DNA from: Candidatus Lindowiibacteriota bacterium | GTDB lineage: Bacteria; Lindowbacteria; 2-12-FULL-62-27 | Direction: 5' to 3' | DNA: 17,455 bases | NCBI GenBank assembly: GCA_023249255.1 | Contig: JAHFCY010000039.1 | Location: 1 to 17,455, forward strand | Part shown: positions 28-14,106 of the stretch, piece by piece | Layout of the letters: each line of letters begins with the position of its first letter | Numbering within the stretch: the first letter of the stretch is position 1 | The notes under the pieces: model-generated | What the model saw: only the letters and a program-made list of their open reading frames with translations | Told to the model about the DNA's origin: nothing | Databases searched by the model: none | Made by a program: the position numbers and the translations under genes

Positions 28-1557
28 TTGAAGCACGGAATGATTTTGTTTGCGGCTGTGATAGCGGTCGCGATTCTGTTCAGCCCAGTTGCGTATGCGG
101 CGCAGGATACGAAAACGATTAACAGCGCCTTGACGTCGACCAGCGGCCCTGGACCGGATGTCGCGGTTGGTTCTGATGGGAAGATCTATGTAAGTCTTGG
201 TTCGGCCAACGACCTTCGTGTGGAGGCTGGATCATACGGTTCAACATCCCAGAAGTACTCAGTAAATACGGGAGGCCCCGTGAGGCTGACTGCCATTGGA
301 CTGACGAAGGCGGATACGGTTGTGGTGGCGGCGGCTCTTGGAACGGACACCACAGTGAAACTGTATTACGCAACGAGTTCGTCTGTGTCGGGGTTGTCGG
401 CTTTAACGTCGTTTATTGTACCCAATTTTGCTGGACCAGAAACGAACGGTGGCCCATCCGGAATCCAAATGAGAATCAGCGGGCTTGACATTGCAGTGAA
501 TGACAGTTTTATCGTCGTCGTTTCCACTCTTGCGAGAGTTACTGGAGATACTGACCGTGGCGGTGAGACTTTTCCGAGTACATTCACCGCTATCTACGAG
601 TATGACACAGCGGTCAATGCCCCGGTGCTGAGCGATTCGCCTGTGGGGGCATTCACGGGTACTGACACTGGCTCGGCGGTTCAACCGCAGGTTGTGTTCG
701 ATCCGGCATCGGGAGAGTCTGGAGCCGTTATCTGGATTGTTAAGACTACGCTCACATCTGCATGGACCACCGGAGACACGGGGGTTAGTCTGTGGAAAGT
801 TCGAATTGGCACTGATACAGGTCGCGGTCGAGTCATCGATGCCGTTCAGGTTTTTCAGGGTCTCGGAGATAGTTACACTATCGGCAGAATCTCTGTTGAG
901 AACGTCACGGGGTCTGACACCCGATCGAGTGTCACCGTTGCCATTGCGGGGGACACATCCACGTGCGGCAACATCAAGGTGTTGGAATTCAGGGACAGTC
1001 GGTTTACTGTTCCGGACGCGACGCTAGCAACGTTTGGCAGACTGCAGGACACTCCGCCGGACACGATTGTCGTCGACTTCGATACAGGCTTGAGCGTACC
1101 CTTCTACACTGTAAGATCGATGTCGTATGGTCGAAGCAGTGCCACCCACGGTTGGGTTCTTTCGTTGGCCAAGCCGTCTGACCTCTCCTCAAAGGCCGAT
1201 ACCATCATGGCGTTTGTGCAGAGTACGCTTGGAGGATCCAGTTTCACATTCGACACGGCCACGACGAGCGCAGCTAACATCAACCGGGATGTGGGCATGA
1301 ACTTGTCCGGTGCTGTGAGAGATGGAACGTTCTACACAGTCGGATGGGACTCGGGTCCGAAATTTGTTTTTGCGACGAAATTGTCGCTGGGCAGTTCTGA
1401 AACCAAGAAGAAAGCCGGCGGCGTGTGTGTGCTGGACCGGATGATTGGCGGTACGAGCTTTGCGAATGCGATCTTCCCAAGCTTGAAGTCGTTCCGTGAC
1501 ACCCTCCTCGGAAGCGATTTTGGCCGGAAGATGGTCGGACTGTACTACACGTTCTAA
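28..1557 (+). CDS. Secreted protein with CFI-box-like C-terminal module
   Basis: A 509-residue exported protein of unknown function. The start is TTG, chosen because a strong AAAGGGGGG Shine-Dalgarno lies 7 bases upstream; the alternative ATG at 40 lacks one. Residues 1-25 form a signal peptide: a short charged start, a hydrophobic core, then a cut near AYA-AQ. The body (about 26-460) is rich in Thr, Ser, Gly and Asp, with many GDT/TDTG motifs. Predicted short beta strands, such as DVAVGSDGKIYVSL, suggest a beta-propeller-like or all-beta surface protein. Residues 466-509 carry Cys467, then SFRDTLL, FGRKMV and the end LYYTF. From memory this pattern matches C-terminal CFI-box modules of exported proteins (FRD..LL..GR..V..YY). 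The DNA for this module recurs as repeats downstream. Export is well supported; the C-terminal family is a recalled similarity and the function is unknown. Confidence 0.75.
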   Translation: MKHGMILFAAVIAVAILFSPVAYAAQDTKTINSALTSTSGPGPDVAVGSDGKIYVSLGSANDLRVEAGSYGSTSQKYSVNTGGPVRLTAIGLTKADTVVVAAALGTDTTVKLYYATSSSVSGLSALTSFIVPNFAGPETNGGPSGIQMRISGLDIAVNDSFIVVVSTLARVTGDTDRGGETFPSTFTAIYEYDTAVNAPVLSDSPVGAFTGTDTGSAVQPQVVFDPASGESGAVIWIVKTTLTSAWTTGDTGVSLWKVRIGTDTGRGRVIDAVQVFQGLGDSYTIGRISVENVTGSDTRSSVTVAIAGDTSTCGNIKVLEFRDSRFTVPDATLATFGRLQDTPPDTIVVDFDTGLSVPFYTVRSMSYGRSSATHGWVLSLAKPSDLSSKADTIMAFVQSTLGGSSFTFDTATTSAANINRDVGMNLSGAVRDGTFYTVGWDSGPKFVFATKLSLGSSETKKKAGGVCVLDRMIGGTSFANAIFPSLKSFRDTLLGSDFGRKMVGLYYTF

Positions 1558-1699
1558 GACTGAATTGGCCGCGGGGCGCGCAAACACAAAGGCGTTCGGT
1601 GGCTTGATAGGCTAAAAGGAAAATCCAGGCGCTTCTTCAAACCTGTAAGGAGCCCTTTCAACCCTGTCGTGGCTAACCAAAGCCGCGACGGGGTTTTTT
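1419..1699 (+). repeat. Repeat R1: C-terminal module plus leader and terminator
   Basis: This is the most complete copy of the repeat family. It starts inside the secreted-protein gene at CGGCGTGTGTG and covers the coding module down to TACTACACGTTCTAA (1543-1557). It then runs through about 100 bases of shared noncoding sequence, including GGCTTGATAGGCTAAAAGG, and ends in a terminator hairpin. The full noncoding part recurs in R3 and pieces recur in R4 and R6. R1 lacks the palindromic 21-base insert found in R2 and R3, so it is closest to the ancestral form. Confidence 0.85.
1662..1699 (+). terminator. Rho-independent terminator of R1
   Basis: CCCTGTCGTGGCT (1662-1674) pairs with AGCCGCGACGGGG (1681-1693) over 13 bp with two G-T pairs. 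The loop is AACCAA and six T follow. It ends transcription of the secreted-protein gene. The loop is the same in the R3 and R6 hairpins while the stem sequence differs. Confidence 0.9.
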
Positions 1700-1711
1700 G
1701 TTTCGTCTTTC

Positions 1712-1740
1712 TTGATATTAAGAAAAGTGGTGTGTACCAT
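1712..1740 (+). promoter_or_regulatory. Sigma70-like promoter just after the R1 terminator
   Basis: TTGATA at 1712-1717 and TACCAT at 1735-1740 are separated by 17 bases. Only 8 bases separate the -10 from the ATG at 1749, so the transcript would be nearly leaderless. Confidence 0.5.
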
Positions 1741-1748
1741 GGGCGTGT

Positions 1749-1992
1749 ATGATCTTTGAAGTTGTCGGTAGGATTGCGAGCGTGGAAGTCATCGCCATTG
1801 GAGGCCGTATACGGGATATCATGCACATCCGTAAGCAGTTCGGAGATGGGCAATGGCGAAAACTCAAGGGTATTGCCGAGGTGCGGGCTTCAAAATGGCG
1901 GGATTCACACGGCCGAAGTGCACTGGTATGAAGCGCACGGTATCGGAAGAAAGAAGATGAAGATCAAGAGATTTTTGGGAGAGGAGGGATGA
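1749..1992 (+). pseudogene. Frameshifted small conserved protein
   Basis: The N-terminal part (MIFEVVGRIASVEVIAIGG... to KGIAEVR) reads from 1749. The C-terminal part (GGIHTAEVHWYEAHGIG, then RKKMKIKRFL) lies in the next frame and stops at 1992. Removing one G from the GGG run at 1884-1886 restores a continuous protein of about 80 residues reading VRLQNGG across the join. From memory, small bacterial proteins ending in HWYEAHGIG-(R/K)K-x-x-KIKR are common and often precede a partner like the next gene; I know no function for them. The remaining tail overlaps the next gene (ATGA), as expected of a two-gene module. The extra base could be real decay or an assembly error. Confidence 0.7.
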
Positions 1993-1994
1993 CC

Positions 1995-2219
1995 ATGGAA
2001 CGGCGAGAACAAAAGTTTGCGCTTTGCATCCGGAACTCGCAGTGTGAGGATCTGGAATTACATAAGGTCTACCGGATCCTCCCCGACGGGCGCGCCGCCA
2101 AAGAAGGCTACTTGAGAATCATCGATGAATCCGGTGAAGATTACCTGTATCCGCAATCCTACTTCATCCGTGTCAAACTGCCTCGCAAAGCGCAAGAAGC
2201 GTTGCCGGTTCCCCGTTAG
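1995..2219 (+). CDS. Small conserved protein, partner of the frameshifted gene
   Basis: A 74-residue soluble protein. I favour ATG 1995 over 1989 because the GAGGAGGG at 1981-1988 abuts the first ATG but sits 6 bases before the second. Visible motifs are FALCIRN near the start, LELHKVYRILPD, and the conserved-looking IDESGEDYLYPQSYF, followed by RVKLP. I recall this family only as a hypothetical protein found next to genes of the type upstream; no catalytic motif is visible. The upstream partner is broken, so this gene may be the surviving half of an antagonistic pair, but that is a guess. Its own stop is about 30 bases before repeat R2. Confidence 0.7.
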   Translation: MERREQKFALCIRNSQCEDLELHKVYRILPDGRAAKEGYLRIIDESGEDYLYPQSYFIRVKLPRKAQEALPVPR

Positions 2220-2250
2220 TGTTGGTCGTGGGCGAGGGGCGAGGGGGCGA

Positions 2251-2432
2251 GGGGTCATTCTGACACTTTGACACTTTCGGTGTGTGTGCTGGACCGGATG
2301 ATTGGCGGTACGAGCTTTGCGAATGCGATCTTCCCAAGCTTGAAGTCGTTCCGTGACCCTCCTGAGGCGGGCAGGCACCCGATCCTCGGAAGCGATTTTG
2401 GCCGGAAGATGACTACAGGGATGTAGGAATCC
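2251..2432 (+). repeat. Repeat R2
   Basis: This copy starts at GGGGTCATTCTGACACTTTG and runs through the C-terminal module (GGTSFANAIFPSLKSFRD) and the FGRKM codons. It stops at ACTACAGGGATGTAGGAATCC, without the leader or terminator. It is nearly identical to the first 180 bases of R3. Compared with R1 it has a 21-base in-frame insert (CCTCCTGAGGCGGGCAGGC plus two bases) after the FRD codons. The sequence after it is a headless membrane ORF. Confidence 0.85.
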
Positions 2433-2555
2433 ATAACGGTTGCCACGGCTGTTGTCGGTGCTATTGTTAAAACGCCTTTCGCAACGGTAGAATTCGCCTG
2501 CGGATTTTTGATTGCCTTGTTCTGGTTTATGTTTGCCATTCTGATTGAGAGGTGA
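2433..2555 (+). pseudogene. Headless small membrane protein ORF
   Basis: An open frame runs from just after repeat R2 to TGA at 2553-2555 and encodes about 40 residues: ITVATAVVGAIVKTP, then a hydrophobic stretch from FACGFLIALFW to AILIER. It has no ATG, GTG or TTG near its beginning. The in-frame stop sits inside the repeat, so the 5' end seems to have been replaced by R2. It would have been a one-helix protein, possibly two. No family is recognised. Confidence 0.4.
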
Positions 2556-2561
2556 GATAAA

Positions 2562-2660
2562 ATGACTCCCTTAACAATTGTTTTCCTCGCGCTGGGGATC
2601 CCGGCGGTTTTGCTTCTCGCATGGGTCCTGCTGTTCGATCGTAAAGCCCGACAACCCTAG
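2562..2660 (+). CDS. 32-residue single-helix membrane peptide
   Basis: The ORF starts 6 bases after the stop of the preceding membrane ORF, with GAGAGGTGAG as ribosome site 5-8 bases before ATG. It encodes a short N-terminus, one hydrophobic helix (about residues 5-24, LTIVFLALGIPAVLLLAWVL) and a positively charged tail FDRKARQP. The layout is that of small membrane peptides such as type I toxins or complex-stabilising subunits, but nothing identifies it. It sits between R2 and R3 in an array of toxin-antitoxin-like modules. Confidence 0.45.
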   Translation: MTPLTIVFLALGIPAVLLLAWVLLFDRKARQP

Positions 2661-2668
2661 GAGGGCGA

Positions 2669-3072
2669 GGGGTCATTCTGACACTTTGACACTTTCGGCG
2701 TGTGTGTTGGAACGGATGATTGGCGGTACGAGCTTTGCGAATGCGATCTTCCCAAGCTTGAAGTCGTCCCGTGACCCTCCTGAGGCGGGCAGGCACCCGA
2801 TCCTCGGAAGCGATTTTGGCCGGAAGATGACTACAGGGATGTAGGAATCCCGCGGGAGCCTGCTTGATGAGCAGGGTGGAGTTGCCATGGAAGGCGGCGC
2901 GGGATGGTCAGTTTGTATTACACGTTCTAAGACTGAATTAGCCGCAGGGCGCGCTAACACAAAAGCGCCCGGTGGCTTGATAGGCTAAAAGGAAATTTTA
3001 GGCGCTTCTTCACCTTAAAGAGGCCCTTTCAACCCTGCGTGGGCTAACCAAAGCCCGCGCGGGGTTTTTTTT
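2669..3072 (+). repeat. Repeat R3, longest copy, with internal insert
   Basis: The copy spans the whole family: the GGGGTCATTC head, the C-terminal module, the TATTACACGTTCTAA end (2916-2930), the leader and the terminator. A 77-base segment (2830-2906) splits the module between FGRKM and VSLYYTF. It is bounded on both sides by GATG, and its first 21 bases are also the end of R2. The part downstream of the insert matches R1 closely, with third-codon changes in the YYTF codons. Confidence 0.85.
3033..3072 (+). terminator. Rho-independent terminator of R3
   Basis: CCCTGCGTGGGCT (3033-3045) pairs with AGCCCGCGCGGGG (3052-3064) around an AACCAA loop; eight T follow. Compared with R1, both arms change together, keeping the pairing. 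Confidence 0.9.
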
Positions 3073-3073
3073 A

Positions 3074-3082
3074 TGGTATAAT
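3074..3082 (+). promoter_or_regulatory. Extended -10 promoter after the R3 terminator
   Basis: TGG-TATAAT is a perfect -10 with the extended TGn element. No good -35 is seen, since the position falls in the terminator stem. Seven bases downstream is GTG 3090, the likely original start of the DUF4258 gene, again implying a leaderless message. Confidence 0.5.
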
Positions 3083-3089
3083 ATCGAGA

Positions 3090-3345
3090 GTGGAGAATTT
3101 GCAGCACGGAAGACACGGCCCATTTCAGAGATATCTTGATCGAACGCAATATCAATCCTGAATGGGTGGATCGGGCGATCCGGGATCCGGACAGGGTCGA
3201 AGAACATGACGGTGGAACCCGGCATTTCATCAAGAGGATACAGGAGTTCGAGAACCGATGGTTGAGGGCAGTCGTGAACGAGTCGACGACGCCCCACAAG
3301 CGCGTCACGGCGTTTTTTGACCGCCGAATGGGGAGGCCGACAGTC
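3090..3345 (+). pseudogene. DUF4258-like protein with damaged start
   Basis: Reading from 3103 gives STEDTAHFRDILIERNINPEWV, then DGGTRHFIKRIQE and VTAFFDRRMGR. This is the usual layout of a small DUF4258 protein (HFRD..ERNI..EWV; TRH; VVN; FFDRR), a family often paired with DUF2283 in putative toxin-antitoxin modules. No ATG, GTG or TTG is in frame between the stop at 3079 and TTG 3136, which would cut into the domain. GTG 3090 (VENL) lies 7 bases after the -10 box and becomes in frame if one base near 3101 is skipped. I therefore infer a one-base insertion. Residual translation from TTG 3136 would run without a stop into DUF2283. Confidence 0.65.
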
Positions 3346-3546
3346 ATGAAAATCAAAGTGGACAAAAACAGCGATGCTCTCTACTTCCGGCTTGACGAAA
3401 GCCGCATTGTTGAATCGGAGGAGATTCGCCCCGGCGTGGTTCTGGATTATGACAAGGACAACCGGGTGGTCGGTGTTGAGTTCCTCGGAATTTCAAAGCG
3501 AGCCACGCCGACCGAATTGTCCTCCCTGCAGTTCCAGACATTGTGA
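3346..3546 (+). CDS. DUF2283 family protein
   Basis: A 66-residue protein with the DUF2283 pattern: MKIKVDKNSDALYFRLDE, then SEEIRPGVVLDYD and VVGVEFLGISKR. The ATG has a GGGGAGG ribosome site 11 bases upstream, so it can be translated alone. The DUF4258 frame upstream nevertheless reads into it without a stop (RRMGR-PTV-MKIK), giving a 136-residue fused ORF from 3136. The family is found beside DUF4258 genes and is usually considered the antitoxin-like member; that role is inferred from context. Confidence 0.75.
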   Translation: MKIKVDKNSDALYFRLDESRIVESEEIRPGVVLDYDKDNRVVGVEFLGISKRATPTELSSLQFQTL

Positions 3547-3600
3547 CATTGCCGAAACGGCGAAACGGATTTGGGCCCGATCCATCCATGGATCAAGATC

Positions 3601-3738
3601 GTCAGTCCGTATTACACGTTCTAAACCGTAGGGGCGAGGTAACCTCGCCCGCACAAACTCGAATAATCGGCGTCCGCCGACAAAGGCGGACCCTTTCAAC
3701 CCCGCTTGTGGTCACCAAACTGTGCGCGGGGTTTTTTT
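3601..3738 (+). repeat. Repeat R4, tail copy carrying extra palindromes
   Basis: This copy keeps only the end of the family: GTC AGT CCG TAT TAC ACG TTC TAA (coding VSPYYTF in R1 frame), a diverged leader, CCCTTTCAA and the terminator. Two short palindromes sit in the leader: GGGCGAGG-TAA-CCTCGCCC (3632-3650) and GGCGTCCGCC...GGCGGACC (3669-3692). Confidence 0.75.
3700..3738 (+). terminator. Rho-independent terminator of R4
   Basis: CCCCGCTTGTGGT pairs with ACTGTGCGCGGGG with one mismatch and several G-T pairs; seven T follow. The next start codon (3755) is only 16 bases away, with no room for a promoter between. Transcription of MNT/HepT must therefore start upstream and pass this hairpin. 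Confidence 0.75.
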
Positions 3739-3754
3739 AGGGAGGATTGAATTT

Positions 3755-4051
3755 ATGGCTCGAATTTCAGTTGATCGGGTTGCCCTGTCGGCTATTTGCA
3801 AAAGGTATCACATTCATAAATTGGCCTTTTTTGGATCTGTCCTTCGCGATGACTTTGGACCGCACAGCGATGTCGACGTGCTGGTCGAGTTTGAGCCGGG
3901 TCACGTTCCGGGTCTGGCCTTTTTTTCCATCGAGCAGGAGTTGACCGGCCTTATCGGGCGCAGGGTCGATCTGAACACCAAAAATTTTTTGAGTCCCTAT
4001 TTCAGAGATGAGGTTCTCTCCGAGGCCGAGGTGCAGTATGTCGCGGCGTGA
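3755..4051 (+). CDS. mntA: MNT-type nucleotidyltransferase antitoxin
   Basis: A 98-residue minimal nucleotidyltransferase. The active-site signature is complete: GS at residues 27-28 (FFGSVLRDDFG) followed by D39 and D41 in SDVDVLVEF, the two acidic residues that bind metal. In the MNT/HepT system this protein is the antitoxin and transfers AMP to a tyrosine of HepT. ATG 3755 is preceded by AGGGAGG at 9 bases. The 3' end overlaps the HepT gene by 14 bases, as is usual for this pair. No promoter is visible close by, and a terminator hairpin lies directly upstream. Length and motifs are normal, so the gene looks intact. Confidence 0.88.
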   Translation: MARISVDRVALSAICKRYHIHKLAFFGSVLRDDFGPHSDVDVLVEFEPGHVPGLAFFSIEQELTGLIGRRVDLNTKNFLSPYFRDEVLSEAEVQYVAA

Positions 4052-4418
4052 TCCAACCGTTTCGTTGCGTCATATGCTGGATCATGCACGGGAGGCGGCG
4101 GACATGATTCGAGGCAAGACGCGGCCTGATCTCGATACGGACAGGAAACTAAACCTGGCGATTGTTCGACTCGTGGATATCATCGGTGAAGCGGCTTCCC
4201 GAATTCCCAAAGAGGAGCAACGTTGCTTTCCGGATATTTCGTGGCCCGGCATAATCAGCATGCGAAATCGTCTGATTCACGGATATGACATCGTCGATTT
4301 TGATGTTCTCTGGACCATTCTCACGACAGATCTGCCGCCCTTAATCACTTCTCTGGAAAAAACGCTTCCGCCGGAAAATTCAGTCGGTGGTACTTCCGGG
4401 CTTGAAGTCGTTCCGTGA
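4038..4418 (+). CDS. hepT: HepT-like RNase toxin (DUF86)
   Basis: A 126-residue helical protein of the HepT/DUF86 family, the RNase toxin of the MNT/HepT module. The catalytic RX4HXY motif is present at R76-H81-Y83 (RNRLIHGY); the tyrosine is the residue modified by the partner. ATG 4038 begins inside the nucleotidyltransferase gene. The family normally ends near residue 113-116. Here about ten further residues (from SVGGTSGLEVVP) and the stop codon come from repeat R5, whose GGCTTGAAGTCGTTCCGTGA is read in frame. The original 3' end was thus replaced by repeat sequence without touching the catalytic part. Function is likely kept. Confidence 0.85.
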   Translation: MSRRDPTVSLRHMLDHAREAADMIRGKTRPDLDTDRKLNLAIVRLVDIIGEAASRIPKEEQRCFPDISWPGIISMRNRLIHGYDIVDFDVLWTILTTDLPPLITSLEKTLPPENSVGGTSGLEVVP

Positions 4419-4450
4419 CCCTCCTGAGGCGGGCAGGCACCCGATCCTCT
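4385..4450 (+). repeat. Repeat R5, short internal fragment
   Basis: This fragment contains GGTGGTAC, then jumps to GGGCTTGAAGTCGTTCCGTGA with the palindromic insert and the CACCCGATCCTC end. The middle of the module is deleted. Its left edge is the 3' end of hepT and its right edge is the truncated hicA. Confidence 0.8.
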
Positions 4451-4451
4451 C

Positions 4452-4592
4452 GTGACAAAAGGCAGTCACCGCCAATATAAGCATCACGTCAAATCAGGAC
4501 GGGTTACAATCGCAGGGCAACCGAGCGATGATTTGGCTCCCGGAACGCTGAACAGCGTTTTGAAACAGGCAGGATTGAAAGAGGTGAAATGA
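4452..4592 (+). pseudogene. hicA: hicA toxin fragment lacking its N-terminus
   Basis: Reading from GTG 4452 gives VTKGSHRQYKHHVKSG, then RVTIAGQPSDDLAPGTLNSVLKQAG and a stop at 4590-4592. This is the C-terminal two thirds of a HicA mRNA-interferase toxin. It includes the active-site His in KGSHRQ and the GTLNS(V/I)LKQAGL end. The first 20 or so residues (the usual first strand and helix) are missing; repeat R5 occupies their place. GTG 4452 might still start translation, but the product would lack part of the fold and is probably inactive. HicB follows after one base. Confidence 0.8.
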
Positions 4593-4593
4593 G

Positions 4594-4833
4594 ATGTATC
4601 GTTTCCTGGTTGTCATCGAAAAGGCGAATGGAAATTATTCGGCATATTCTCCTGATCTACCGGGATGTATTGCGACGGGCTCGACCCGTGAGGATGCCGA
4701 ACAAAACATGCATAAGGCGGTCGGAATGCATGTCCACGGTCTTCTGGAAGACAGATTGTCCATTCCGGAACCGTCTTCGTTTGCGGAATACGTGGTGATT
4801 CCGGGAAGCGAGGGAAGCGAGGGGTCATTCTGA
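4594..4833 (+). CDS. hicB: HicB-family antitoxin
   Basis: A 79-residue HicB antitoxin: MYRFLVVIEKANGNYSAYSPDLPGC is the typical first half, followed by STREDAEQNMHKAVGMHVHGLLEDR and the end FAEYVVIP. It follows the hicA remnant directly, with AGAGGTG upstream as ribosome site. The tail GSEGSEGSF and the stop codon come from the purine-rich lead-in and the GGGGTCATTCTGA head of repeat R6, so the natural end was probably just after VVIP. Because its toxin is truncated, this may be an orphan antitoxin. Confidence 0.85.
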   Translation: MYRFLVVIEKANGNYSAYSPDLPGCIATGSTREDAEQNMHKAVGMHVHGLLEDRLSIPEPSSFAEYVVIPGSEGSEGSF

Positions 4834-4964
4834 CACTTTGACACTTTCGGGGTGTGTGTGTTGGATCGGTGGCTTGACAGGCTAAAAGGAAAATTCAGGC
4901 GTCCGTCTCAGGCGGACCCTTTCAATTCTGTCTTGGCTAACCAAAGCTGCGACAGGTTTTTTTT
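4814..4964 (+). repeat. Repeat R6, deletion copy with terminator
   Basis: The head (GGGGTCATTC to GTGTTGGATCGG) is joined directly to the leader TGGCTTGACAGGCTAAAAGG at a CGG shared by both edges in R1, so the coding module is deleted. A short palindrome, CGTCCGTCTCAGGCGGACC, sits where R1 has GCTTCTTCAAACC. The copy ends in a terminator. Confidence 0.85.
4927..4964 (+). terminator. Rho-independent terminator of R6
   Basis: TCTGTCTTGGCT pairs with AGCTGCGACAGG with one mismatch, around the conserved AACCAA loop; eight T follow. It ends transcription from hicB. Confidence 0.85.
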
Positions 4965-4965
4965 C

Positions 4966-4995
4966 TTGACGCCAACCTTTCTTCGGCGGTACACT
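4966..4995 (+). promoter_or_regulatory. Sigma70-like promoter after the R6 terminator
   Basis: TTGACG (4966-4971) starts one base after the T tract. TACACT (4990-4995) follows after 18 bases. ATG 5002 is 6 bases further on, so transcription should begin at or next to the start codon. Confidence 0.6.
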
Positions 4996-5001
4996 GATTC
5001 G

Positions 5002-5222
5002 ATGATGAAACGGTACACGGTTGTGATCGAACGAGATGAGGATGGATTCTATGTTGCGACCTGCCCGGCTTTCCGGGGTGTTTTACCCAGGGGAAAACAT
5101 ATCGGCAGGCCATGGGACGGGTTCGGAGTCTGATCCGAATTTTTGCCGCCATCCGCCGGAAAGAAGATGGAGAACTTCCGGAAGAAGTTGGCGTGGAGCA
5201 CGTGAACGTTGGCGCTTCTTAG
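5002..5222 (+). pseudogene. hicB: hicB antitoxin with one-base deletion
   Basis: The first frame gives MKRYTVVIERDEDGFYVATCPAFRG, a standard HicB start. The frame then fails. The next frame continues from about 5080 with CFTQGKTYRQAMGRVRSL and ends ELPEEVGVEHVNVGAS before TAG 5220-5222. Adding one base near 5077-5080 (after CGGGG) restores a HicB of about 73 residues with the usual PAF-x-GC-x-TQGKTY motif. As given, the first frame stops at 5133. The gene overlaps the hicA-like frame that follows, which is the usual hicB-hicA arrangement. Confidence 0.8.
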
Positions 5223-5545
5223 GCCTTTAAAGCAGCGCGTGGTAGCCCAGATTCTCAGAAGACTTGATTTCAAGTTGGATCGAACTCAAAAGGGTCCACA
5301 TGAAATTTATCGCCGGGAGTCCGACGGAAAAACAGTTCCCCTTCTTCCCCGTCATCCCTCCGAAAAAGGCGCTGGACAGGATACTGCGGGCCGCCAAAAA
5401 TGGTGTGGACATCAACAACGTCGACACGGCCGTCAAATTGTTTTTTGTGAACCGGCTCCGCGAGAATGGGTCAAGATGGTCCCGCCTTGTCGACCGCGGA
5501 CCCCGGACCGCAGTGCGTCCCTTAAAATGGCGCCGTTTGTATTGA
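5209..5545 (+). pseudogene. Frameshifted HicA-like toxin
   Basis: From TTG 5209, overlapping the end of hicB, one frame reads LKQRVVAQILRRLDFKLDR, then KGPHEIYRRESDGKTVPLLPRHPS. This resembles a HicA: the helix LRRLDF, a (G/S)-x-H active-site region and VP..H. The remainder of the fold appears in the next frame as KKALDRILRAAKNGVDIN from about 5358. Skipping one base near 5355 joins them. The usual Ser before the His is Pro here (KGPHE). The second frame runs on to 5545 without a HicA-like end, so the 3' border is uncertain. It is assigned mainly by position after HicB. Confidence 0.5.
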
Positions 5546-5570
5546 CTTTGCACTACAACTTCCGCATAAT
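5542..5570 (+). promoter_or_regulatory. Sigma70-like promoter of the BrnT/BrnA-like pair
   Basis: TTGACT at 5542-5547 and CATAAT at 5565-5570 are 17 bases apart. GTG 5577 follows after 6 bases and no ribosome site precedes it, so the mRNA is probably leaderless. Confidence 0.65.
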
Positions 5571-5576
5571 CCCGTT

Positions 5577-5873
5577 GTGAAGATCATCATAAATGCTTAT
5601 AGTGCCGAGTACATCTTAAAACACGGTGTACGGCCGGAAGAGGTTCATGAAATCGCCGCGGACCCCGGAAGAGTCGATTCACGTTTGAAGCGCATTCGTT
5701 CCGTGATGTTCGGAATAACGGTTGACGGCTGGTATCTGAAAGTGATTCTGAAAAAAACAAAAAAAGGACTTGAACTGCGATCGGCGTGGGATATGGAAGA
5801 GTCCGAGATAGAAACGTATAAGAGAAACAGAAAAATCAGGAGGCAAAATGGCGAAGAAAAAGAAACTCCCTGA
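5577..5873 (+). CDS. BrnT-like toxin
   Basis: A 98-residue basic protein starting at GTG. KHGVRPEEVHEIAADPGRV, then RSVMFGITVDGWYLKVIL and ELRSAWDMEESEIETYKRNRK follow the BrnT/RelE-like order: KHGV.xEEV, an R..G.T..G.YL.V strand pair, and a final xAxxMxxxExxxY segment. The downstream overlapping gene is a CopG/BrnA-type antitoxin, which supports the role of ribonuclease toxin. The last dozen residues (RRQNGEEKETP) are translated from the antitoxin ribosome site and start region. It is the only module here with both genes apparently intact besides MNT/HepT. Confidence 0.6.
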   Translation: MKIIINAYSAEYILKHGVRPEEVHEIAADPGRVDSRLKRIRSVMFGITVDGWYLKVILKKTKKGLELRSAWDMEESEIETYKRNRKIRRQNGEEKETP

Positions 5874-6117
5874 CTTCGATAAAATGACGGACGAGGAGGA
5901 GGGGGAGTGGTTCAAAACCCATGACCTCACAAGATATATCGATGAGACCGATATCATTCATCTCGATATCGATCCTCCTGGCAAGGGTGTCCTTCAGCTT
6001 CGCCTGTCCAACCGCGTGATTCGAAAACTCGAACGCCTGGCTCGCGAAAATGGACTTCGCGGGAAATCCACTTTGGCCGGCATGGTATTGACCAACTACG
6101 TCGACAAGGCCGCATAA
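5848..6117 (+). CDS. CopG/BrnA-like antitoxin
   Basis: An 89-residue protein with CAGGAGG 6 bases before ATG. The N-terminal half has the pattern PDFDKMTDEEEGEWFKTHDLTRY, then an acidic linker, typical of CopG-type antitoxins that neutralise the toxin with this segment. The C-terminal half (about residues 50-86, LQLRLSNRVIRKLERLARENG and following) is a ribbon-helix-helix DNA-binding domain. It overlaps the toxin gene by 26 bases. Such antitoxins normally repress their own promoter; the target would be near 5542-5577. Confidence 0.75.
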   Translation: MAKKKKLPDFDKMTDEEEGEWFKTHDLTRYIDETDIIHLDIDPPGKGVLQLRLSNRVIRKLERLARENGLRGKSTLAGMVLTNYVDKAA

Positions 6118-6154
6118 AAACAATTTTCGCCCGGCGTCCAAAAGAAAAGGAAAA

Positions 6155-6206
6155 GGGGTCATTCTGACACTTTGACACTTTCGGCGTGTGTGCGCTGGAC
6201 CGGCTG
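6155..6206 (+). repeat. Repeat R7, head fragment
   Basis: Only the head of the family is present: GGGGTCATTCTGACACTTTG to TGCGCTGGACCGGCTGATTGG. It then runs into unrelated sequence. It marks the right edge of the repeat-bounded array, 38 bases after the last antitoxin gene. Confidence 0.8.
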
Positions 6207-6254
6207 ATTGGCTGTCATCCGCAGGAGTTTATAGTCGGTGAGAGAGAAAAAAAT

Positions 6255-6397: not shown

Positions 6398-7186
6398 ATG
6401 AGTGCGGTAGTGGGGGAGAGAGTCTGGCTTGACGAGGAGGAAGTTCTTCGTGATCAGCTTCTGCAGATGCGCGAAGAATACGGGGCCACATCCTTAAAAG
6501 TTTCGACCGAAGACGCGGGGATGAGTTACGAGGAGATTCGGACTGTCCACCGGCTGTTTCACGACATATTGCCGATCCAGGCGAAGATCGGCGGGGTGGA
6601 GGCCCGGCAGGATATGCGGGCCATGGTGGATATCGGGTGCCGCGCGATCATCGGGCCCATGATCGAATCGAGTTATTCCCTCCAAAAATTCATCGAGAGC
6701 CTCAAGCAGGAGCTGGGCGAGAAGCCGTATGCCTTTATCGGAAAACAGATCAACATCGAGACCGAGACCGCCTGCCGGAATCTCGACAAGATTTTCGCGC
6801 GTCCCGAAATCGCCGAGATCACGCAGATCACCGTCGGCCGGACAGACCTCTGCCGGTCGATGGGGCGTGAGCCGAACCATCACGAAGTGATGCGGCGCGT
6901 GGCGGAGGTCGTGTCGGCTGCGAAGGAGCGGAACATTCCGGTGTCGGTGGGCGGCCGGATCACGCCGAAAGACGCGGTGCGGCTCATGGAAGTATGCGCG
7001 CCGACGCGGCTCAACACGCGTGACGTGGGGCTGGACCCGAACCTGTGCCAAAATCTCGAAGAGGCGGTCCAGCGGATGCTGGATTTTGAGATCGCGGTTC
7101 TCGAACACCAGAAACTTTTCGGCCGCCGCGCGATCACGTCCCTGACCAACCGGATCGGCACGCTCAGAGGGCGGAAGAACAGATAG
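6398..7186 (+). CDS. HpcH/HpaI aldolase / citrate lyase family protein
   Basis: A 262-residue TIM-barrel enzyme of the phosphoenolpyruvate/pyruvate superfamily. Motifs in order: REEYGATSLKVSTED near residue 25, KIGGVEARQDM (63-73), IGPMIESSYSLQKF (85-98), INIETETACRN (118-128) and VGRTDLC (146-152). The acidic residues in INIE and GRTD are the expected metal ligands. Related enzymes cleave or form C-C bonds with pyruvate or oxaloacetate enolates or with acyl-CoA; the substrate here is unknown. The family member is short, without the extra domain of CitE. It sits 77 bases before the ATP-grasp/FMN fusion gene and most likely acts with it. Confidence 0.8.
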   Translation: MSAVVGERVWLDEEEVLRDQLLQMREEYGATSLKVSTEDAGMSYEEIRTVHRLFHDILPIQAKIGGVEARQDMRAMVDIGCRAIIGPMIESSYSLQKFIESLKQELGEKPYAFIGKQINIETETACRNLDKIFARPEIAEITQITVGRTDLCRSMGREPNHHEVMRRVAEVVSAAKERNIPVSVGGRITPKDAVRLMEVCAPTRLNTRDVGLDPNLCQNLEEAVQRMLDFEIAVLEHQKLFGRRAITSLTNRIGTLRGRKNR

Positions 7187-7263
7187 GAAGAAGACTGAAG
7201 AAGACTGAAGAAGGCTGGAGAAGACTGAAGAAGTCTGAAGAAGGCTGGAGAAGCGGGGAGAAG
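7187..7263 (+). repeat. Decamer tandem repeat between two genes
   Basis: About seven units of AGAAGACTGA-like sequence (variants AGAAGGCTGG, AGAAGTCTGA) fill the whole gap between the aldolase and the fusion gene. The last units supply the GGGGAGAAG that precedes the next ATG as a ribosome site. Confidence 0.85.
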
Positions 7264-9489
7264 ATGGACACCCTTCTGATTATCGGGGCCGGGGTGATGC
7301 AGGCTCCGGCGATCCGCATTGCGCGAGAGATGGGATTTCGGACGGTCGTGACGGACTACAATCCGCACGCGCAGGGCATGTTGATGGCGGACGTGCCGAT
7401 GGTCATGAGCACGCGGGACGTTCAGGGCACGGTGCGTGTCGCGCGCGAAATCCATGAAACTTATCCGATCAGCGGTTGTATCACCGTCGGCACCGACGCG
7501 AGCGTCACTGTCGCGGCCGTCTGCGAAGCGCTGGGATTACCGGGTATCCGGACGGACGCGGCTGAGCGCGCGACCGACAAAATCAAAATGCGCCGGGCGT
7601 TTCGGGCGTCGGGCGTTCCGTCGCCGGGGTTTTGCGGTGTGTGGACGATGGCGGAAGCCGAGGAGGCGCTGAAGGAAATCGGATTGCCGGCGGTGATCAA
7701 GCCGGCGGACAACATGGGCGCGCGCGGCGTGAAAAAAATATCGAAAGACTGGGAGCTTGAGGCCGGGTTTCGCGAGGCGAAGGCGGCGTCGACGTCGGGC
7801 GGCGTCATCATCGAAGAATACATGCCGGGTGAAGAGCTCTCGATCGACGTGTTGATCCACGCCGGCCGCCCGCTGTTCAGCGCCGTGGCCGACCGGATGA
7901 TCAAGTATCCTCCCTACTTCGTCGAAATCGGCCACATCCTGCCTTCGAACAAACCCAAAGACATTCAGCGCGCCGCGGTCGATCTGACGATGCGGGGATG
8001 TGAGGCTCTGGGGATCACGACGGGAGCCGCGAAGTCCGACATCCGGCTGACGCCGAAGGGTCCGATGATCGGGGAGCTGGCGGCGCGCCTGTCGGGCGGG
8101 TTCATGTCGGGCTGGACGTGTCCGGCCGCGACCGGCGTCGAAATCATCCGAAGCGCGATCGAGATCGCGACAGGCCGGACTCCGACGCCCATTCGTCCGA
8201 CCAACCACAAAGTTTCTGTCGAGCGGTCGATCATTCCGATGCCGGGCCGGGTGGTGTCGGTATCGGGCGAGGAGGACGTCCGCAAGATGCCGGGCGTGGT
8301 GGCGCTGTTCGTGGACGTCAAGGAGGGTGACGTGGTGGCGGCGCCGAAATCCAATCTCGACAAAGCCGGGCATGTGGTCGTTGTCGGGCCGGACCGGGAG
8401 GCGGCGCTGAATCTGGCGGAGGAGGCGCTGACGAAAATCCGGATCGAAATCGGCGCGCCGAGTTTCACGAACTGGGATGACGTCCGGTCGGCCGCCTCAA
8501 AAAATTTCGGGTCGGTCTGTCGGGCGTGCCGGGAATGCGACGGGAATGTCTGCGCCGGCTGGGTACCGGGCGTCGGCGGCGTGGGAACCGGAACGACGTT
8601 CAAGGACAATTTCAAAGCGTGGCGGCAGATGCGTCTGCGGTTGAGAACGATTCATTCCGTGAAGGAAGTTGACCCGTCGATCCAGCTTTTCGGCCGAACG
8701 CTGGCGCATCCGATTCTGGCCGCGCCGATGACGGGCACGAGCACGAACATGGGCGGCGTTCTGACGGAGGACGAGTTCACGGAATATTTCATCCGCGGCA
8801 TGGCCGAGACCGGATCGATTCCGATGGTCGGCGACGGCGCGTCGATCAACAAATATCAGATCATTCTGGACGCGGCCGCGCGCCATGACGGCTGGGCGAT
8901 TCCGATTTTCAAACCGCGCGTGGACGAGGAGGAACTCCGTCGGCGGTTCGATCTGGCGCGGGATGTGGGATGTCCGGCGATGGGGATGGACGTCGATGCG
9001 GCGAATTTCATCACAATGCAAAAAAAGGGCGTGGCTGTCGAAACCAAAACGCCGGCCCAGCTTCGGGACTACATCTCGTACGCCGGCCGGCCGTTCATTT
9101 TGAAAGGCATCATGACGCCGGACCAGGCCGAGCTTGCGGTCGAGGTTGGCGCATCCGCGATTGTCGTGTCGAACCACGGCGGCCGGGTTCTGGATTTCAT
9201 GCCGTCGACCGCGTCGGTATTGCCGGGGATTGCGTCGGCCGTGAAAGGCCGTCTGACCGTGTTTGTGGACGGCGGGATCCGGACGGGCGACGAGGTGTTA
9301 AAGGCGCTGGCGCTGGGGGCGGATGCCGTGCTGGTCGGCCGGCCGCTCATGATCGCCGCAGTGGGCGCCAAGGCCGAGGGCGTGAGTCTGTACGTCAAGC
9401 GGATGGAAAAAGAATTAAAAAAAGCGATGTTGTTGACGGGGTGCGCGCGCGTATCGGACGCGTCACCTGAAATACTGCAGATGAATTAA
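7264..9489 (+). CDS. Fusion: ATP-grasp ligase + FMN alpha-hydroxy-acid dehydrogenase
   Basis: A 741-residue two-domain protein. Residues 1-395 are an ATP-grasp ligase: a Rossmann-like start (LLIIGAGVMQAPAI), TDKIKMRRAF, VIKPADNMGARGVKKI (145-159), VIIEEYMPGEE (181-191), and the metal-binding IGELAARLSGGF (269-280). Residues about 410-741 are a COG1304-type FMN barrel: APMTGTS (487-493), KGI (614-616), SNHGGR (636-641, His as base), DGGIRTGDE (669-677) and GRP (692-694). Between them is C-x2-C-x2-C-x4-C (419, 422, 425, 430), followed by PGVGGVGTGTTF. This cysteine run heads the stand-alone clostridial relatives I recall and might hold an Fe-S cluster. ATP-grasp enzymes join a carboxylate to an amine or thiol; the FMN part oxidises 2-hydroxy acids. 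The fusion implies consecutive steps; the substrate is unknown. Confidence 0.85.
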   Translation: MDTLLIIGAGVMQAPAIRIAREMGFRTVVTDYNPHAQGMLMADVPMVMSTRDVQGTVRVAREIHETYPISGCITVGTDASVTVAAVCEALGLPGIRTDAAERATDKIKMRRAFRASGVPSPGFCGVWTMAEAEEALKEIGLPAVIKPADNMGARGVKKISKDWELEAGFREAKAASTSGGVIIEEYMPGEELSIDVLIHAGRPLFSAVADRMIKYPPYFVEIGHILPSNKPKDIQRAAVDLTMRGCEALGITTGAAKSDIRLTPKGPMIGELAARLSGGFMSGWTCPAATGVEIIRSAIEIATGRTPTPIRPTNHKVSVERSIIPMPGRVVSVSGEEDVRKMPGVVALFVDVKEGDVVAAPKSNLDKAGHVVVVGPDREAALNLAEEALTKIRIEIGAPSFTNWDDVRSAASKNFGSVCRACRECDGNVCAGWVPGVGGVGTGTTFKDNFKAWRQMRLRLRTIHSVKEVDPSIQLFGRTLAHPILAAPMTGTSTNMGGVLTEDEFTEYFIRGMAETGSIPMVGDGASINKYQIILDAAARHDGWAIPIFKPRVDEEELRRRFDLARDVGCPAMGMDVDAANFITMQKKGVAVETKTPAQLRDYISYAGRPFILKGIMTPDQAELAVEVGASAIVVSNHGGRVLDFMPSTASVLPGIASAVKGRLTVFVDGGIRTGDEVLKALALGADAVLVGRPLMIAAVGAKAEGVSLYVKRMEKELKKAMLLTGCARVSDASPEILQMN

Positions 9490-11687: not shown

Positions 11688-13018
11688 CGGGATTCGATTT
11701 CTGGGCGGCGTGCAAGGCGGCGATTGCGATCGACTCGACGACGAAGCACGGCAACGCCGAGTACGTCGATTTTTTAAAAAAAATTCTGGAACCACTGGAT
11801 CTGAAGGTCCGGACGCAGGCGGTCGACGCGGACGGATATCGCGGCCTGAATCTGATCGGCGAGAAGGGCGCGGGTCCGGACGTGGTTTTGTTCGACACGC
11901 ACCTGGACACCGTGTCGCCGGGCGATCCGGCGCTCTGGACGCAAACCGGCGGCGATCCGTTCCGGGCGGTCATCGAAGACGGAAAAATTTTCGGATTGGG
12001 CGCGGTCGACGTCAAGCTCGATTTTTTGTGCAAGCTCAAGGCGCTGGAAAAATACGCCGGCAAACGATTTCGAAACCGTTTCATTCTGCTCGGAACGTTT
12101 GCCGAAGAGGTCGGGCTTCTGGGCGCGCAGGCGTTTTTAGAGGGGCATCCGGACCAGCAGATCGATTTCGCGCTGATCGGCGAGCCGACAAGTTTGAAGC
12201 TGGTGAACCGGCACAAGGGCCGGGCGTGTTATGAGTTCAGAATTCCGGCCGGTTCCGGGGACACAAAAACATTTTCCGAAACAGTCACAATCGAATTTCA
12301 GGGCGAGTCGGTGCATTCGAGCACTCCCGCCAAGGGTGTGAACGCCGTCGAGATCGCGATGGATGCGCTGGCGGCATTGCCGGTCCAGCCGGAATTTTTT
12401 TCCATCGAGGGCGGGCACCTCATGAACATCGTTCCCGAGAGCTGTCGGATCGTCCTGCCCGCGGGGATTACGGGACTGGATCGCCTGTCCGCCCGCGCGT
12501 CAGTGAAACCAACAGGCGCGAAGCGGCTCATTCGTTCATCCGGCGCATTGGCGTTTTGGGCCGCGGCGCGGGAAGTCGGCCGGCGGCTGGCGTCGGGCAC
12601 GACGTGGGTGTGGGTCACGGCAAAAACGGCCGATGACGCATTCGTGTTCGAATTCGACAGCCGGTTCTGGGAGGACGCCGAGTCGGTGACGGAGCAGAAC
12701 TTGGCTGGCCTGCCGCCCGCGAACTGCCGGACGATCCGCAAGACCCCGTCATTTTTCGAGACGAGCACGGCCTGGTACGTCGAAGGCCTTTGCGGCGCGC
12801 TCGAAGAGGTGGGTGTGCATGCGGAGTTTGCAAGCAAGGAAGCGTCAACGGAAGCGGCGTTGTTCGGGCATCGATGCACGACGCTGGTGTTCGGTCCGGG
12901 CCCTTCGGAAAAAAACGCGCACCGGCCCAACGAATATAATTTTGTCAGCGAGATCGAAACGGCGATCCGCGCCTACGAGTCGATTTTGCGCCGGCTGGTT
13001 CTCGCGCCGAATCAATGA
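11678..13018 (+). CDS. M20 family metallopeptidase/deacylase (AstE-like role)
   Basis: A 446-residue M20 (ArgE/DapE-type) zinc hydrolase. Ligands and catalytic residues: FDTHLDTVS (H75, D77), GAVDVK (D111), AEEVG (E143, E144), LIGEPT (E169) and NAHRPNEY (H415). The lid domain shows SSTPAKGVNAVEIA (214-227). Such enzymes remove acyl groups from amino acids. Between the aminotransferase and AstA, the fitting reaction is hydrolysis of N-succinylglutamate to glutamate and succinate, normally done by the unrelated AstE. The assignment of substrate is inferred from the operon alone. ATG 11678 overlaps the upstream stop, and the gene's TGA overlaps the next ATG (ATGA). Confidence 0.85.
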   Translation: MPVTGFDFWAACKAAIAIDSTTKHGNAEYVDFLKKILEPLDLKVRTQAVDADGYRGLNLIGEKGAGPDVVLFDTHLDTVSPGDPALWTQTGGDPFRAVIEDGKIFGLGAVDVKLDFLCKLKALEKYAGKRFRNRFILLGTFAEEVGLLGAQAFLEGHPDQQIDFALIGEPTSLKLVNRHKGRACYEFRIPAGSGDTKTFSETVTIEFQGESVHSSTPAKGVNAVEIAMDALAALPVQPEFFSIEGGHLMNIVPESCRIVLPAGITGLDRLSARASVKPTGAKRLIRSSGALAFWAAAREVGRRLASGTTWVWVTAKTADDAFVFEFDSRFWEDAESVTEQNLAGLPPANCRTIRKTPSFFETSTAWYVEGLCGALEEVGVHAEFASKEASTEAALFGHRCTTLVFGPGPSEKNAHRPNEYNFVSEIETAIRAYESILRRLVLAPNQ

Positions 13019-14106
13019 AACGGATGACCGGCCGGATGAAGGTCCGCCTGAGGCGGACGCGAAGTCCGGGGATGGCCGGGAGCGGGACGGACTGGCTGAT
13101 CCGGCAGGCCCGGCCGGAGGACATCAAGGATCTTCTCAAACTGGCCCGGCGGCTCGATTCGGTCAATCTTCCGGCCGATGAGCCGGCGATTTCGGGGCTG
13201 ATTCACAAGTCGCGGGAATCGTTCGCGAGCCGCAGCCGGGAAATCGTCCACAGCCAGTTTTTGTTCGTCATCGAGAATGCCGCCACGGGTGAAGTCGTCG
13301 GCTCGTCGCAGATTCTGGACAAGCATGGAATCGTCAACCGGCCGCACATCGGGTTCAAGCTGGTGCAAGTCGAAAAATCGAGCCGGACGATGAACCGGTC
13401 GTTCACGCACACGTGTATGAAACTCGAATGGAATTCCGAAGGCATCACCGAAATCGGCGGCCTCATCGTGGCCGACCGGTACCGGTCGCATCCGGACAAG
13501 TTAGGCAAGCTGATTTCCTACGCCCGGTTTCTTTACATGTCGATGTGGCCCGAAAAATTCCGGTCCGAAGTCCTCGCGGAGCTTTTGCCGCCTCTGGACA
13601 AACACGGCGATTCTCTTTTCTGGGAATACGTCGGGAAAAAATTCACCGGCATGTCGTACAAAGAGGCGAACGCAACCTGCCGGACAAACGCCGAGTTCAT
13701 GTTTTCGCTTTTCCCTCACACGCTGATCTACGCGACCATCCTGCCGGAAAAAGTCCAGAAACTGATCGGCGCGGTCCATCCGGACACGCAGCCCGTGCCG
13801 CGGATGCTGGAATCGATCGGATTCCGATTTACCGGAGAAGTATGCCCGTTTGATGGCGGGCCGCATTACCGCGCGAAGATGGCTGAGATCACGCTGTTGA
13901 AAAAATGCCGGCCGATGGCGGTTGTCTTTGGCGATCCGGTCGCGGATGCTCCGCAGTCGCTCGTGGCGCATGACGACGCGGGTGAATTTCGCGCGGCGGT
14001 TTTGCCTGTCGCCCCGGCGTCGCCGAGCGTGGGTGTCAGCCCATCCACGGCGAAACTTCTTGGCGTGCGCCGCGGCCAGCATGTTCATGTACTGCCGTTG
14101 AAATGA
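13015..14106 (+). CDS. astA: Arginine N-succinyltransferase
   Basis: The enzyme transfers succinyl from succinyl-CoA to the alpha-amino group of arginine, the first step of the AST pathway. AstA signatures: IRQARPEDIKDLLKLA (29-44), SLPA-like VNLPADE (50-56), EIGGLIVADRYR (146-157), LGKLISYARFLYMSMWPEKFR (163-183), LFWEYVGKKF (201-210), VHPDT (254-258) and GFRF...FDGGPHY (269-285). ATG 13015 overlaps the stop upstream, giving 363 residues. The first 19 include translation of a palindrome (13041-13057). ATG 13072 would give 344 residues, the size of E. coli AstA, and is an equally likely start. Confidence 0.9.
   Translation: MKRMTGRMKVRLRRTRSPGMAGSGTDWLIRQARPEDIKDLLKLARRLDSVNLPADEPAISGLIHKSRESFASRSREIVHSQFLFVIENAATGEVVGSSQILDKHGIVNRPHIGFKLVQVEKSSRTMNRSFTHTCMKLEWNSEGITEIGGLIVADRYRSHPDKLGKLISYARFLYMSMWPEKFRSEVLAELLPPLDKHGDSLFWEYVGKKFTGMSYKEANATCRTNAEFMFSLFPHTLIYATILPEKVQKLIGAVHPDTQPVPRMLESIGFRFTGEVCPFDGGPHYRAKMAEITLLKKCRPMAVVFGDPVADAPQSLVAHDDAGEFRAAVLPVAPASPSVGVSPSTAKLLGVRRGQHVHVLPLK
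13041..13057. repeat. Palindrome GTCCGCC-TGA-GGCGGAC at the astA 5' end
   Basis: A perfect 7-bp inverted repeat with a TGA loop lies between the two candidate starts of astA. Related forms occur inside repeats R4 (3669-3692) and R6 (4902-4919). Confidence 0.8.

What the first reader, a model, noticed from the sequence alone, without database searches (positions are those of the whole stretch)
1419..6206. A 3' gene end (C-terminal export module plus terminator) has become a dispersed repeat family
Seven partial copies (1419-1699, 2251-2432, 2669-3072, 3601-3738, 4385-4450, 4814-4964, 6155-6206) share blocks in one order: a GTCATTC head, a coding block for GGTSFANAIF..SFRD..FGRKM..YYTF-stop, a leader, and a terminator. 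In R1 the block is the real end of a secreted protein and resembles a CFI-box C-terminus. In R3 and R4 the YYTF codons differ mainly at third positions, although no gene body remains. The copies may be remnants of a family of surface-protein genes or of an element that carries this 3' end.
Basis: partly seen in the sequence, partly recalled or inferred. Interest (0 to 1): 0.72.

Follow-up and report, generated by a model that had tools for sequence, protein, structure and literature searches.

The report
Gene-tail repeats spacing a toxin–antitoxin array
The tail end and transcription terminator of one secreted-protein gene recur as spacers between small toxin–antitoxin genes, at the same chromosomal place in two related uncultured bacterial genera; this looks like an old toxin–antitoxin array that grows, shuffles and decays without an integron integrase.

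Summary
The repeats are real. R1 is the true 3' end of an exported-protein gene. R2–R7 are gene-less pieces of the same end (coding block, leader, terminator); R2, R3, R6 and R7 begin with a 27-nt head. The head is not part of the gene: it is the terminal inverted repeat (TIR) of a Y1 tyrosine transposase (TIRYT/RAYT) element, also found alone elsewhere in the genome. Between the copies lie toxin–antitoxin-type genes (DUF4258/DUF2283, MntA/HepT, HicAB, BrnT/CopG-like). Apart from the bare TIR, no copy was found outside this locus.

A related genus (Ca. Lindowbacteria MAG) has a larger array at the orthologous locus, with the same plan and shared modules. A third genus has the gene and one terminator but no array. 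Block copies are 93% and 88% alike within the two genera, 66% between them, yet R4 and one copy of the other genus share a variant leader: the array probably predates the genus split and evolves concertedly. The terminator hairpin is kept with compensatory changes in gene-less copies.

Best reading: a chromosomal toxin–antitoxin accretion array whose spacers act as terminators and recombination homology. It is not an integron. How copies arise is unproven.

The parts
28..1557 (+). exported-protein gene (509 aa, signal-peptide-like start, divergent CFI-box-like C-terminus); source of the repeats
   Evidence: homologues in two other genera of the family (27-33% overall, C-terminus much better conserved)
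1419..1702 (+). R1: 3' coding block, leader and terminator of the gene itself (no TIR head)
1741..2219 (+). module 1: frameshifted small gene (1741-1992) and 76-aa ORF (1989-2219), TA-like by size and setting only
   Evidence: no Pfam or PADLOC match
2251..2432 (+). R2: TIR head (2251-2279) + block; terminator missing; ends inside the 5' part of the next gene
2433..2660 (+). module 2: two small membrane peptides, the first lacking its 5' end; same pair in G001
   Evidence: alignment to L042:9124 onwards
2669..3072 (+). R3: most complete copy: TIR head, block, second inserted repeat (2830-2905), tail, leader, terminator
3100..3546 (+). module 3: DUF4258 + DUF2283 genes, read in one open frame
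   Evidence: DUF2283 3.9e-17; DUF4258 3e-5, just below cut-off
3564..3738 (+). R4: older copy: tail, variant leader, terminator; resembles G001 copy m
   Evidence: 72 nt, 81%, E 1.2e-11
3755..4418 (+). module 4: MntA-type nucleotidyltransferase and HepT-like toxin
4385..4450 (+). R5: middle of block only; joined to HicA about 16 codons inside the gene
4451..4833 (+). module 5: HicA remnant + HicB (shared with G001, 72% DNA identity)
4821..4964 (+). R6: TIR head joined to leader and terminator (block deleted)
4966..6117 (+). module 6: broken HicB/HicA-like fragments (5001-5360) and BrnT-like / CopG-like pair (5577-6117)
   Evidence: BrnT 0.028 and CopG 2.9e-5, both below cut-off
6155..6215 (+). 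R7: TIR head and first ~35 nt of the block

Best explanation
This is a chromosomal toxin-antitoxin (TA) accretion array that lies directly behind an exported-protein gene and has probably existed since before two genera split. Its spacers are copies of that gene's 3' end, leader and intrinsic terminator, many fused on the left to the TIR of a Y1 (TIRYT-type) transposase element. A complete unit reads: terminator - promoter - TA genes - TIR - gene-end block - terminator. Step 1 (shown): the repeat units are local, in one orientation, and shared with another genus at the orthologous locus. Step 2 (supported): the terminator is kept in gene-less copies, so each TA operon is closed off from its neighbours. 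Step 3 (inferred): the direct repeats give homology for duplication, conversion and deletion, so the array gains, swaps and loses TA modules; broken copies (R2, R5) mark deletions that ran into the next module. Step 4 (inferred, weakest): the TIR marks a past Y1-transposase event that created or moved the first TIR-block fusion.
For: TA-type genes between copies in both genera. Orthologous locus: flanking genes 79-81% identical. Shared modules in the same order, membrane pair then HicAB, and a shared leader variant in R4 and G001 copy m. All block copies confined to one locus in each genome. Genus-specific clustering, 93/88% within against 66% between, and two 185-nt copies 100% identical in the other genus. 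Terminator stem 96.6% paired over ten copies from three genera, 8 of 15 pairs with changes on both sides; observed covariation beats all 500 shuffles and all slid versions. -35/-10-like sites close behind terminator T-runs, e.g. window 1712 and 4966, L042 7173 and 8167. Head = inverted ends of Y1_Tnp genes on G000 C15 and G001 C44. No array in the third genus.
Against: No population or time series, so cassette gain and loss were not seen. The covariation may partly come from old gene-linked terminator variants. Several TA genes are broken, one module has no family match, and several TA hits are below curated cut-offs; TA activity rests on family resemblance. Not all modules in G001 have the same orientation (PIN genes on the minus strand).
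Confidence: 0.6

Rival explanations
1. The TIR-block-terminator unit is itself a mobile element moved in trans by the TIRYT (Y1) transposase: the TIR is its left end, a hairpin its right end, and it inserts behind genes.
For: The left edge of R2, R3, R6 and R7 is exactly the TIR edge seen at solo TIRs, and the sequence to its left differs between copies. Six G001 copies also begin at a TIR, of the type that flanks G001's own transposase. Solo TIRs sit mostly near gene 3' ends.
Against: No compound copy lies anywhere else in either genome, whereas bare TIRs do. No inverted TIR closes the right side. The left flanks of R2, R3 and R6 share GCGAGGG units and most G001 ones share TCATGGT, so they are not fully independent.
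Confidence: 0.2
2. The copies are remnants of a tandem family of exported-protein genes whose bodies were deleted, with TA genes filling the gaps.
For: One G001 copy (f) reaches upstream into the SKKK region in frame and has no TIR; a paralogue N-terminus lies on contig C12; copies differ as paralogues would.
Against: No gene body fragment remains in either array beyond that one; most copies begin at the same TIR junction; blocks are genus-specific in sequence.
Confidence: 0.12
3. It is an integron cassette array with degenerate attC sites.
For: TA cassettes in a row with a repeat behind each, mostly in one orientation.
Against: No integron integrase over cut-off in three genomes, and the weak hits lie on other contigs. 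Head + block does not fold better than shuffles in a consistent way. The repeat is a gene end with an intrinsic terminator.
Confidence: 0.03

Closest known systems
TIRYT / TIRtron elements (Di Nocera et al. 2013, PMC3733652; Quentin et al. 2018, subclass 2.1, PMC6006769)
   Same: Y1 transposase gene flanked by inverted TIRs; reported consensus GGGGWSAS, here GGGGTCAT (7 of 8); solo TIRs form a dispersed family
   Different: Here the TIR is fused to a host gene end plus terminator and recurs in direct orientation between TA modules; the passages read describe no such fusion, and no tandem repeats outside the TIRs
Chromosomal (super)integron arrays with TA cassettes, e.g. Vibrionaceae (PMC11014356, PMC3948777)
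   Same: Small cassettes, TA genes among them, in a row with a repeat behind each
   Different: No integron integrase, no attC-like folding; the repeat is a gene 3' end with an intrinsic terminator; modules seem to have their own promoters
CFI-box-CTERM domain (NCBIfam NF041770)
   Same: C-terminal Cys followed by RD..L, GR and YY motifs; several proteins per genome carry the module
   Different: All matches are far below the curated cut-off; the CFI motif reads CVL, CLM, CLI or CVI here
REP / BIME / REPIN repeats with RAYTs (PMC2817692)
   Same: Short repeats near gene 3' ends linked to a Y1 transposase
   Different: Not a GC-rich palindrome and no GTAG foot; the ends carry two direct ~8-nt motifs

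Membership tests
TIRYT element end (the head) | Inverted repeats flanking a Y1_Tnp (PF01797) gene | tested here: met
   Head flanks Y1_Tnp genes on G000 C15 (4681+/5740-) and G001 C44 (3796+/4850-); 22 of 24 Y1_Tnp loci in the three genomes have inverted flanks of 15 nt or more
TIRYT element end (the head) | GGGGWSAS motif at the outer end | tested here: inconclusive
   GGGGTCAT matches 7 of 8 positions; other TIRs here read GGGGTCAG, GGGGCCGG and others
Integron | Integron integrase (TIGR02249) in the genome, next to the array | tested here: not met
   No hit over cut-off in three genomes; weaker hits are on other contigs and control genomes ring as well. The genome is incomplete
Integron | Repeats fold into an attC-like hairpin | tested here: not met
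   Head + block folding z-scores -1.89, -0.89, 0.31 and -0.53
Type II / VII toxin-antitoxin modules | Toxin- and antitoxin-family domains in adjacent small genes | tested here: met
   NTP_transf_2 + HepT-like and DUF2283 + DUF4258, HicB with HicA remnant; HicA/HicB, DUF433/DUF5615, DUF4160/DUF2442 in G001. Some below cut-off
Type II / VII toxin-antitoxin modules | Toxicity and its neutralisation | not testable with these tools
   Needs expression in a laboratory strain
CFI-box-CTERM protein (R1) | Score over the NCBIfam cut-off of 40 bits | tested here: not met
   17.6 bits for the window protein, 14.0 and 15.8 for its homologues
Coding C-terminal module in gene-less copies | Conserved frame with synonymous excess | tested here: not met
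   In-frame 21-nt insertion in R2/R3/R5, second insertion in R3, frameshifts in G001 copies b, c, d, g, h; the R3/R4 codon differences match the other genera's genes
Intrinsic terminator | G+C-rich stem followed by a T-run, kept across copies | tested here: met
   96.6% of cells paired; 8 of 15 pairs with changes on both sides

The most novel reading that the evidence does not exclude
A Y1 (TIRYT) single-strand transposase drives an integron-like cassette system without an integrase: TIR - gene-end - terminator - TA units in direct orientation are cut out and re-inserted at GGG(G/T) targets, so that this lineage stores TA genes as cassettes behind one host gene.
Probability: 0.12. Interest if true: 0.85.

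Novelty: new variant of a known kind. Interest (0 to 1): 0.6.

Why it matters
TA genes are known to gather in arrays, and the best-known case relies on integrons. Here a row of TA modules is kept at one place across two genera by spacers made from an ordinary gene's tail and terminator. That makes it possible to ask how TA arrays form without an integrase, and whether insulation by terminators is selected. The transposase ends and the short tandem repeats beside them also give material for studying how TIRYT transposases choose their targets.

Tried and rejected
Integron: no integrase over cut-off, no attC-like folding. Known RNA family in the leader: no Rfam match. tRNA or tmRNA target site: none. 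Genome-wide dispersal of the block: rejected. Coding maintenance of gene-less copies: rejected from insertions, frameshifts and ancestral-looking codons. Search of genome contigs for further arrays found only the two relatives already known. Head pattern in 290 genomes: outside the family only one genome (G069), with five loose matches. Assembly artefact: unlikely, as an independent MAG shows the same arrangement at the orthologous locus. The automatic alignment handled the first hairpin poorly, so it was checked by folding single sequences. Literature searches on TA arrays with repeats gave nothing close. Structure prediction of the exported protein was not run because only three sequences were available.

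Full report
What was checked. The window is the whole of contig C224 of a 3.35-Mb MAG (366 contigs, 88.7% complete). The seven copies exist and are highly significant. R1 is the true end of a 509-aa exported-protein gene (28-1557). R2-R7 have no gene body. Only R2, R3, R6 and R7 begin with the GTCATTC head.

What the head is. The string GTCATTCTGACACTTTGACA occurs 14 times in the genome, ten of them outside the array. On contig C15 two heads flank a gene in inverted orientation; the gene is a Y1 transposase (Pfam Y1_Tnp 9e-8; NCBIfam REP_Tyr_transpos 1e-12 but below its cut-off). In the related genus G001 a variant head, GTCATTCTTCTACTTTGCTAC, flanks a Y1 transposase on C44 in the same way. 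Of 24 Y1_Tnp loci in the three family genomes, 22 have inverted flanks of 15 nt or more, mostly with GGG(G) at the outer side and two direct ~8-nt motifs inside. This fits TIRYT elements ('TIRtrons', TIR consensus GGGGWSAS; PMC3733652; PMC6006769). The head is therefore a transposase end, not part of the gene tail. Array copies in each genus carry the head type that flanks that genus's own transposase.

What lies between the copies. Pfam finds DUF4258 and DUF2283 (3136-3546), a nucleotidyltransferase antitoxin with a HepT-like toxin (3755-4418), HicB (4594-4833) and BrnT/CopG-like genes (5577-6117); a HicA remnant precedes HicB. Several are broken or below cut-offs, and module 1 has no match. 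In G001 the spaces hold HicA/HicB, DUF433/DUF5615, PIN-domain genes, a second HicAB, DUF4160/DUF2442 and a zeta-toxin-like gene.

The same locus in another genus. G001 is Candidatus Lindowbacteria bacterium RIFCSPLOWO2_12_FULL_62_27. Its homologous gene is followed by twelve further block, leader or terminator pieces over about 10 kb. The genes behind the window's array (6398-9489 and on) are 79-81% identical to those at G001:C4:236284 onwards, so the arrays are at orthologous loci. A third genus, G002, has the gene with one terminator and no array; it shares upstream genes with G001.

Age and concerted evolution. Block copies average 93% identity within the window genome, 88% within G001 and 66% between them, and cluster by genus. 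Yet R4 and G001 copy m share a distinctive leader (72 nt, 81%, E 1.2e-11), and the HicAB module is 72% identical in DNA over 349 nt and lies in the same order behind the membrane-peptide pair. The simplest reading is an array older than the genus split, whose blocks were later homogenised or re-amplified in each lineage. Two 185-nt copies in G001 are 100% identical, which shows recent copying or conversion.

Are the gene-less copies doing anything? Coding: no; the blocks carry insertions or frameshifts. Termination: probably yes. Across ten leader/terminator copies from three genera the main stem is paired in 96.6% of cells and 8 of 15 pairs show changes on both sides; the whole structure beats every shuffle and every slid control on the covariation score. 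A second, upstream hairpin is formed by different bases in different copies. Promoter-like sites lie just behind several T-runs, so TA operons seem to sit between terminators. R2 and R5 lack terminators, and the gene behind each has lost its 5' end, as expected if single deletions ran from the spacer into the module.

How the copies arise. Two facts pull in different directions. The left edge of head-bearing copies is exactly the TIR edge, and the sequence beside it differs, which suggests transposition. But no compound copy occurs anywhere else in either genome, which favours local duplication and recombination. I judge local recombination of an old TIR-block fusion most likely (0.6 for the whole account), mobilisation by the Y1 transposase 0.2, gene-family remnants 0.12. 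An integron is not supported: no integrase over cut-off and no unusual folding.

The C-terminal module. It resembles CFI-box-CTERM but stays far below the cut-off (17.6 against 40 bits). At least seven other proteins in the genome end with a divergent version (Cys, then RD..L, GR and YY), so it is a genome-wide C-terminal signal, of which only this gene's copy has multiplied.

Novelty. Each part is known (TIRYT ends, TA arrays, intrinsic terminators). Their combination, a TA array spaced by one gene's own tail at a conserved locus, was not found in the literature searched, which covers open-access papers only.

Noticed in passing
Outer flanks of TIRs, e.g. L118:4145-4187, L113, L096, L101; window 2224-2253 and 4800-4823: Short tandem repeats of the local sequence sit directly outside many Y1-transposase TIRs: tandem score outside 7.9, inside 3.9, shuffles 5.1 over 42 ends (Wilcoxon p = 1.4e-6); also at 32 solo and array heads (7.4 against 4.5, p = 3e-4). 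Cause unknown; not described in the TIRYT passages read.
   Followed up: partly
L045:4681, L046:6271, L049:1810, L050:9832 (TIR heads, inner side): Host reading frames run into the TIR and use its internal TGA, ending in (E)SVKVSE or similar; one looks like the end of FtsY (by eye). The transposase on C15 ends the same way.
   Followed up: partly
window 2830-2905; G000 contigs C59, C272, C292: A separate repeat (ACTACAGGGATGTAGGAATCCCGCGGGAGC...) is inserted in R3; pieces of it occur on other contigs.
   Followed up: no
L042:14006-14701 (-): Group II intron reverse transcriptase/maturase fragment inside the G001 array, directly beside a TIR-block copy.
   Followed up: no
window 7179-7268: Ten-base tandem repeat AGAAGACTGA with variants between two genes.
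   Followed up: no
window 13015-16381: Genes that look like an arginine N-succinyltransferase, a succinylglutamate-semialdehyde-type dehydrogenase and an amidinotransferase-like protein in a row; judged by eye only.
   Followed up: no
L044 (G000 C12) 23-634 and 1739-3997: Paralogue of the exported-protein gene, cut off by the contig end, next to a homologue of window 16378-17208; the missing part might hold a second array.
   Followed up: no
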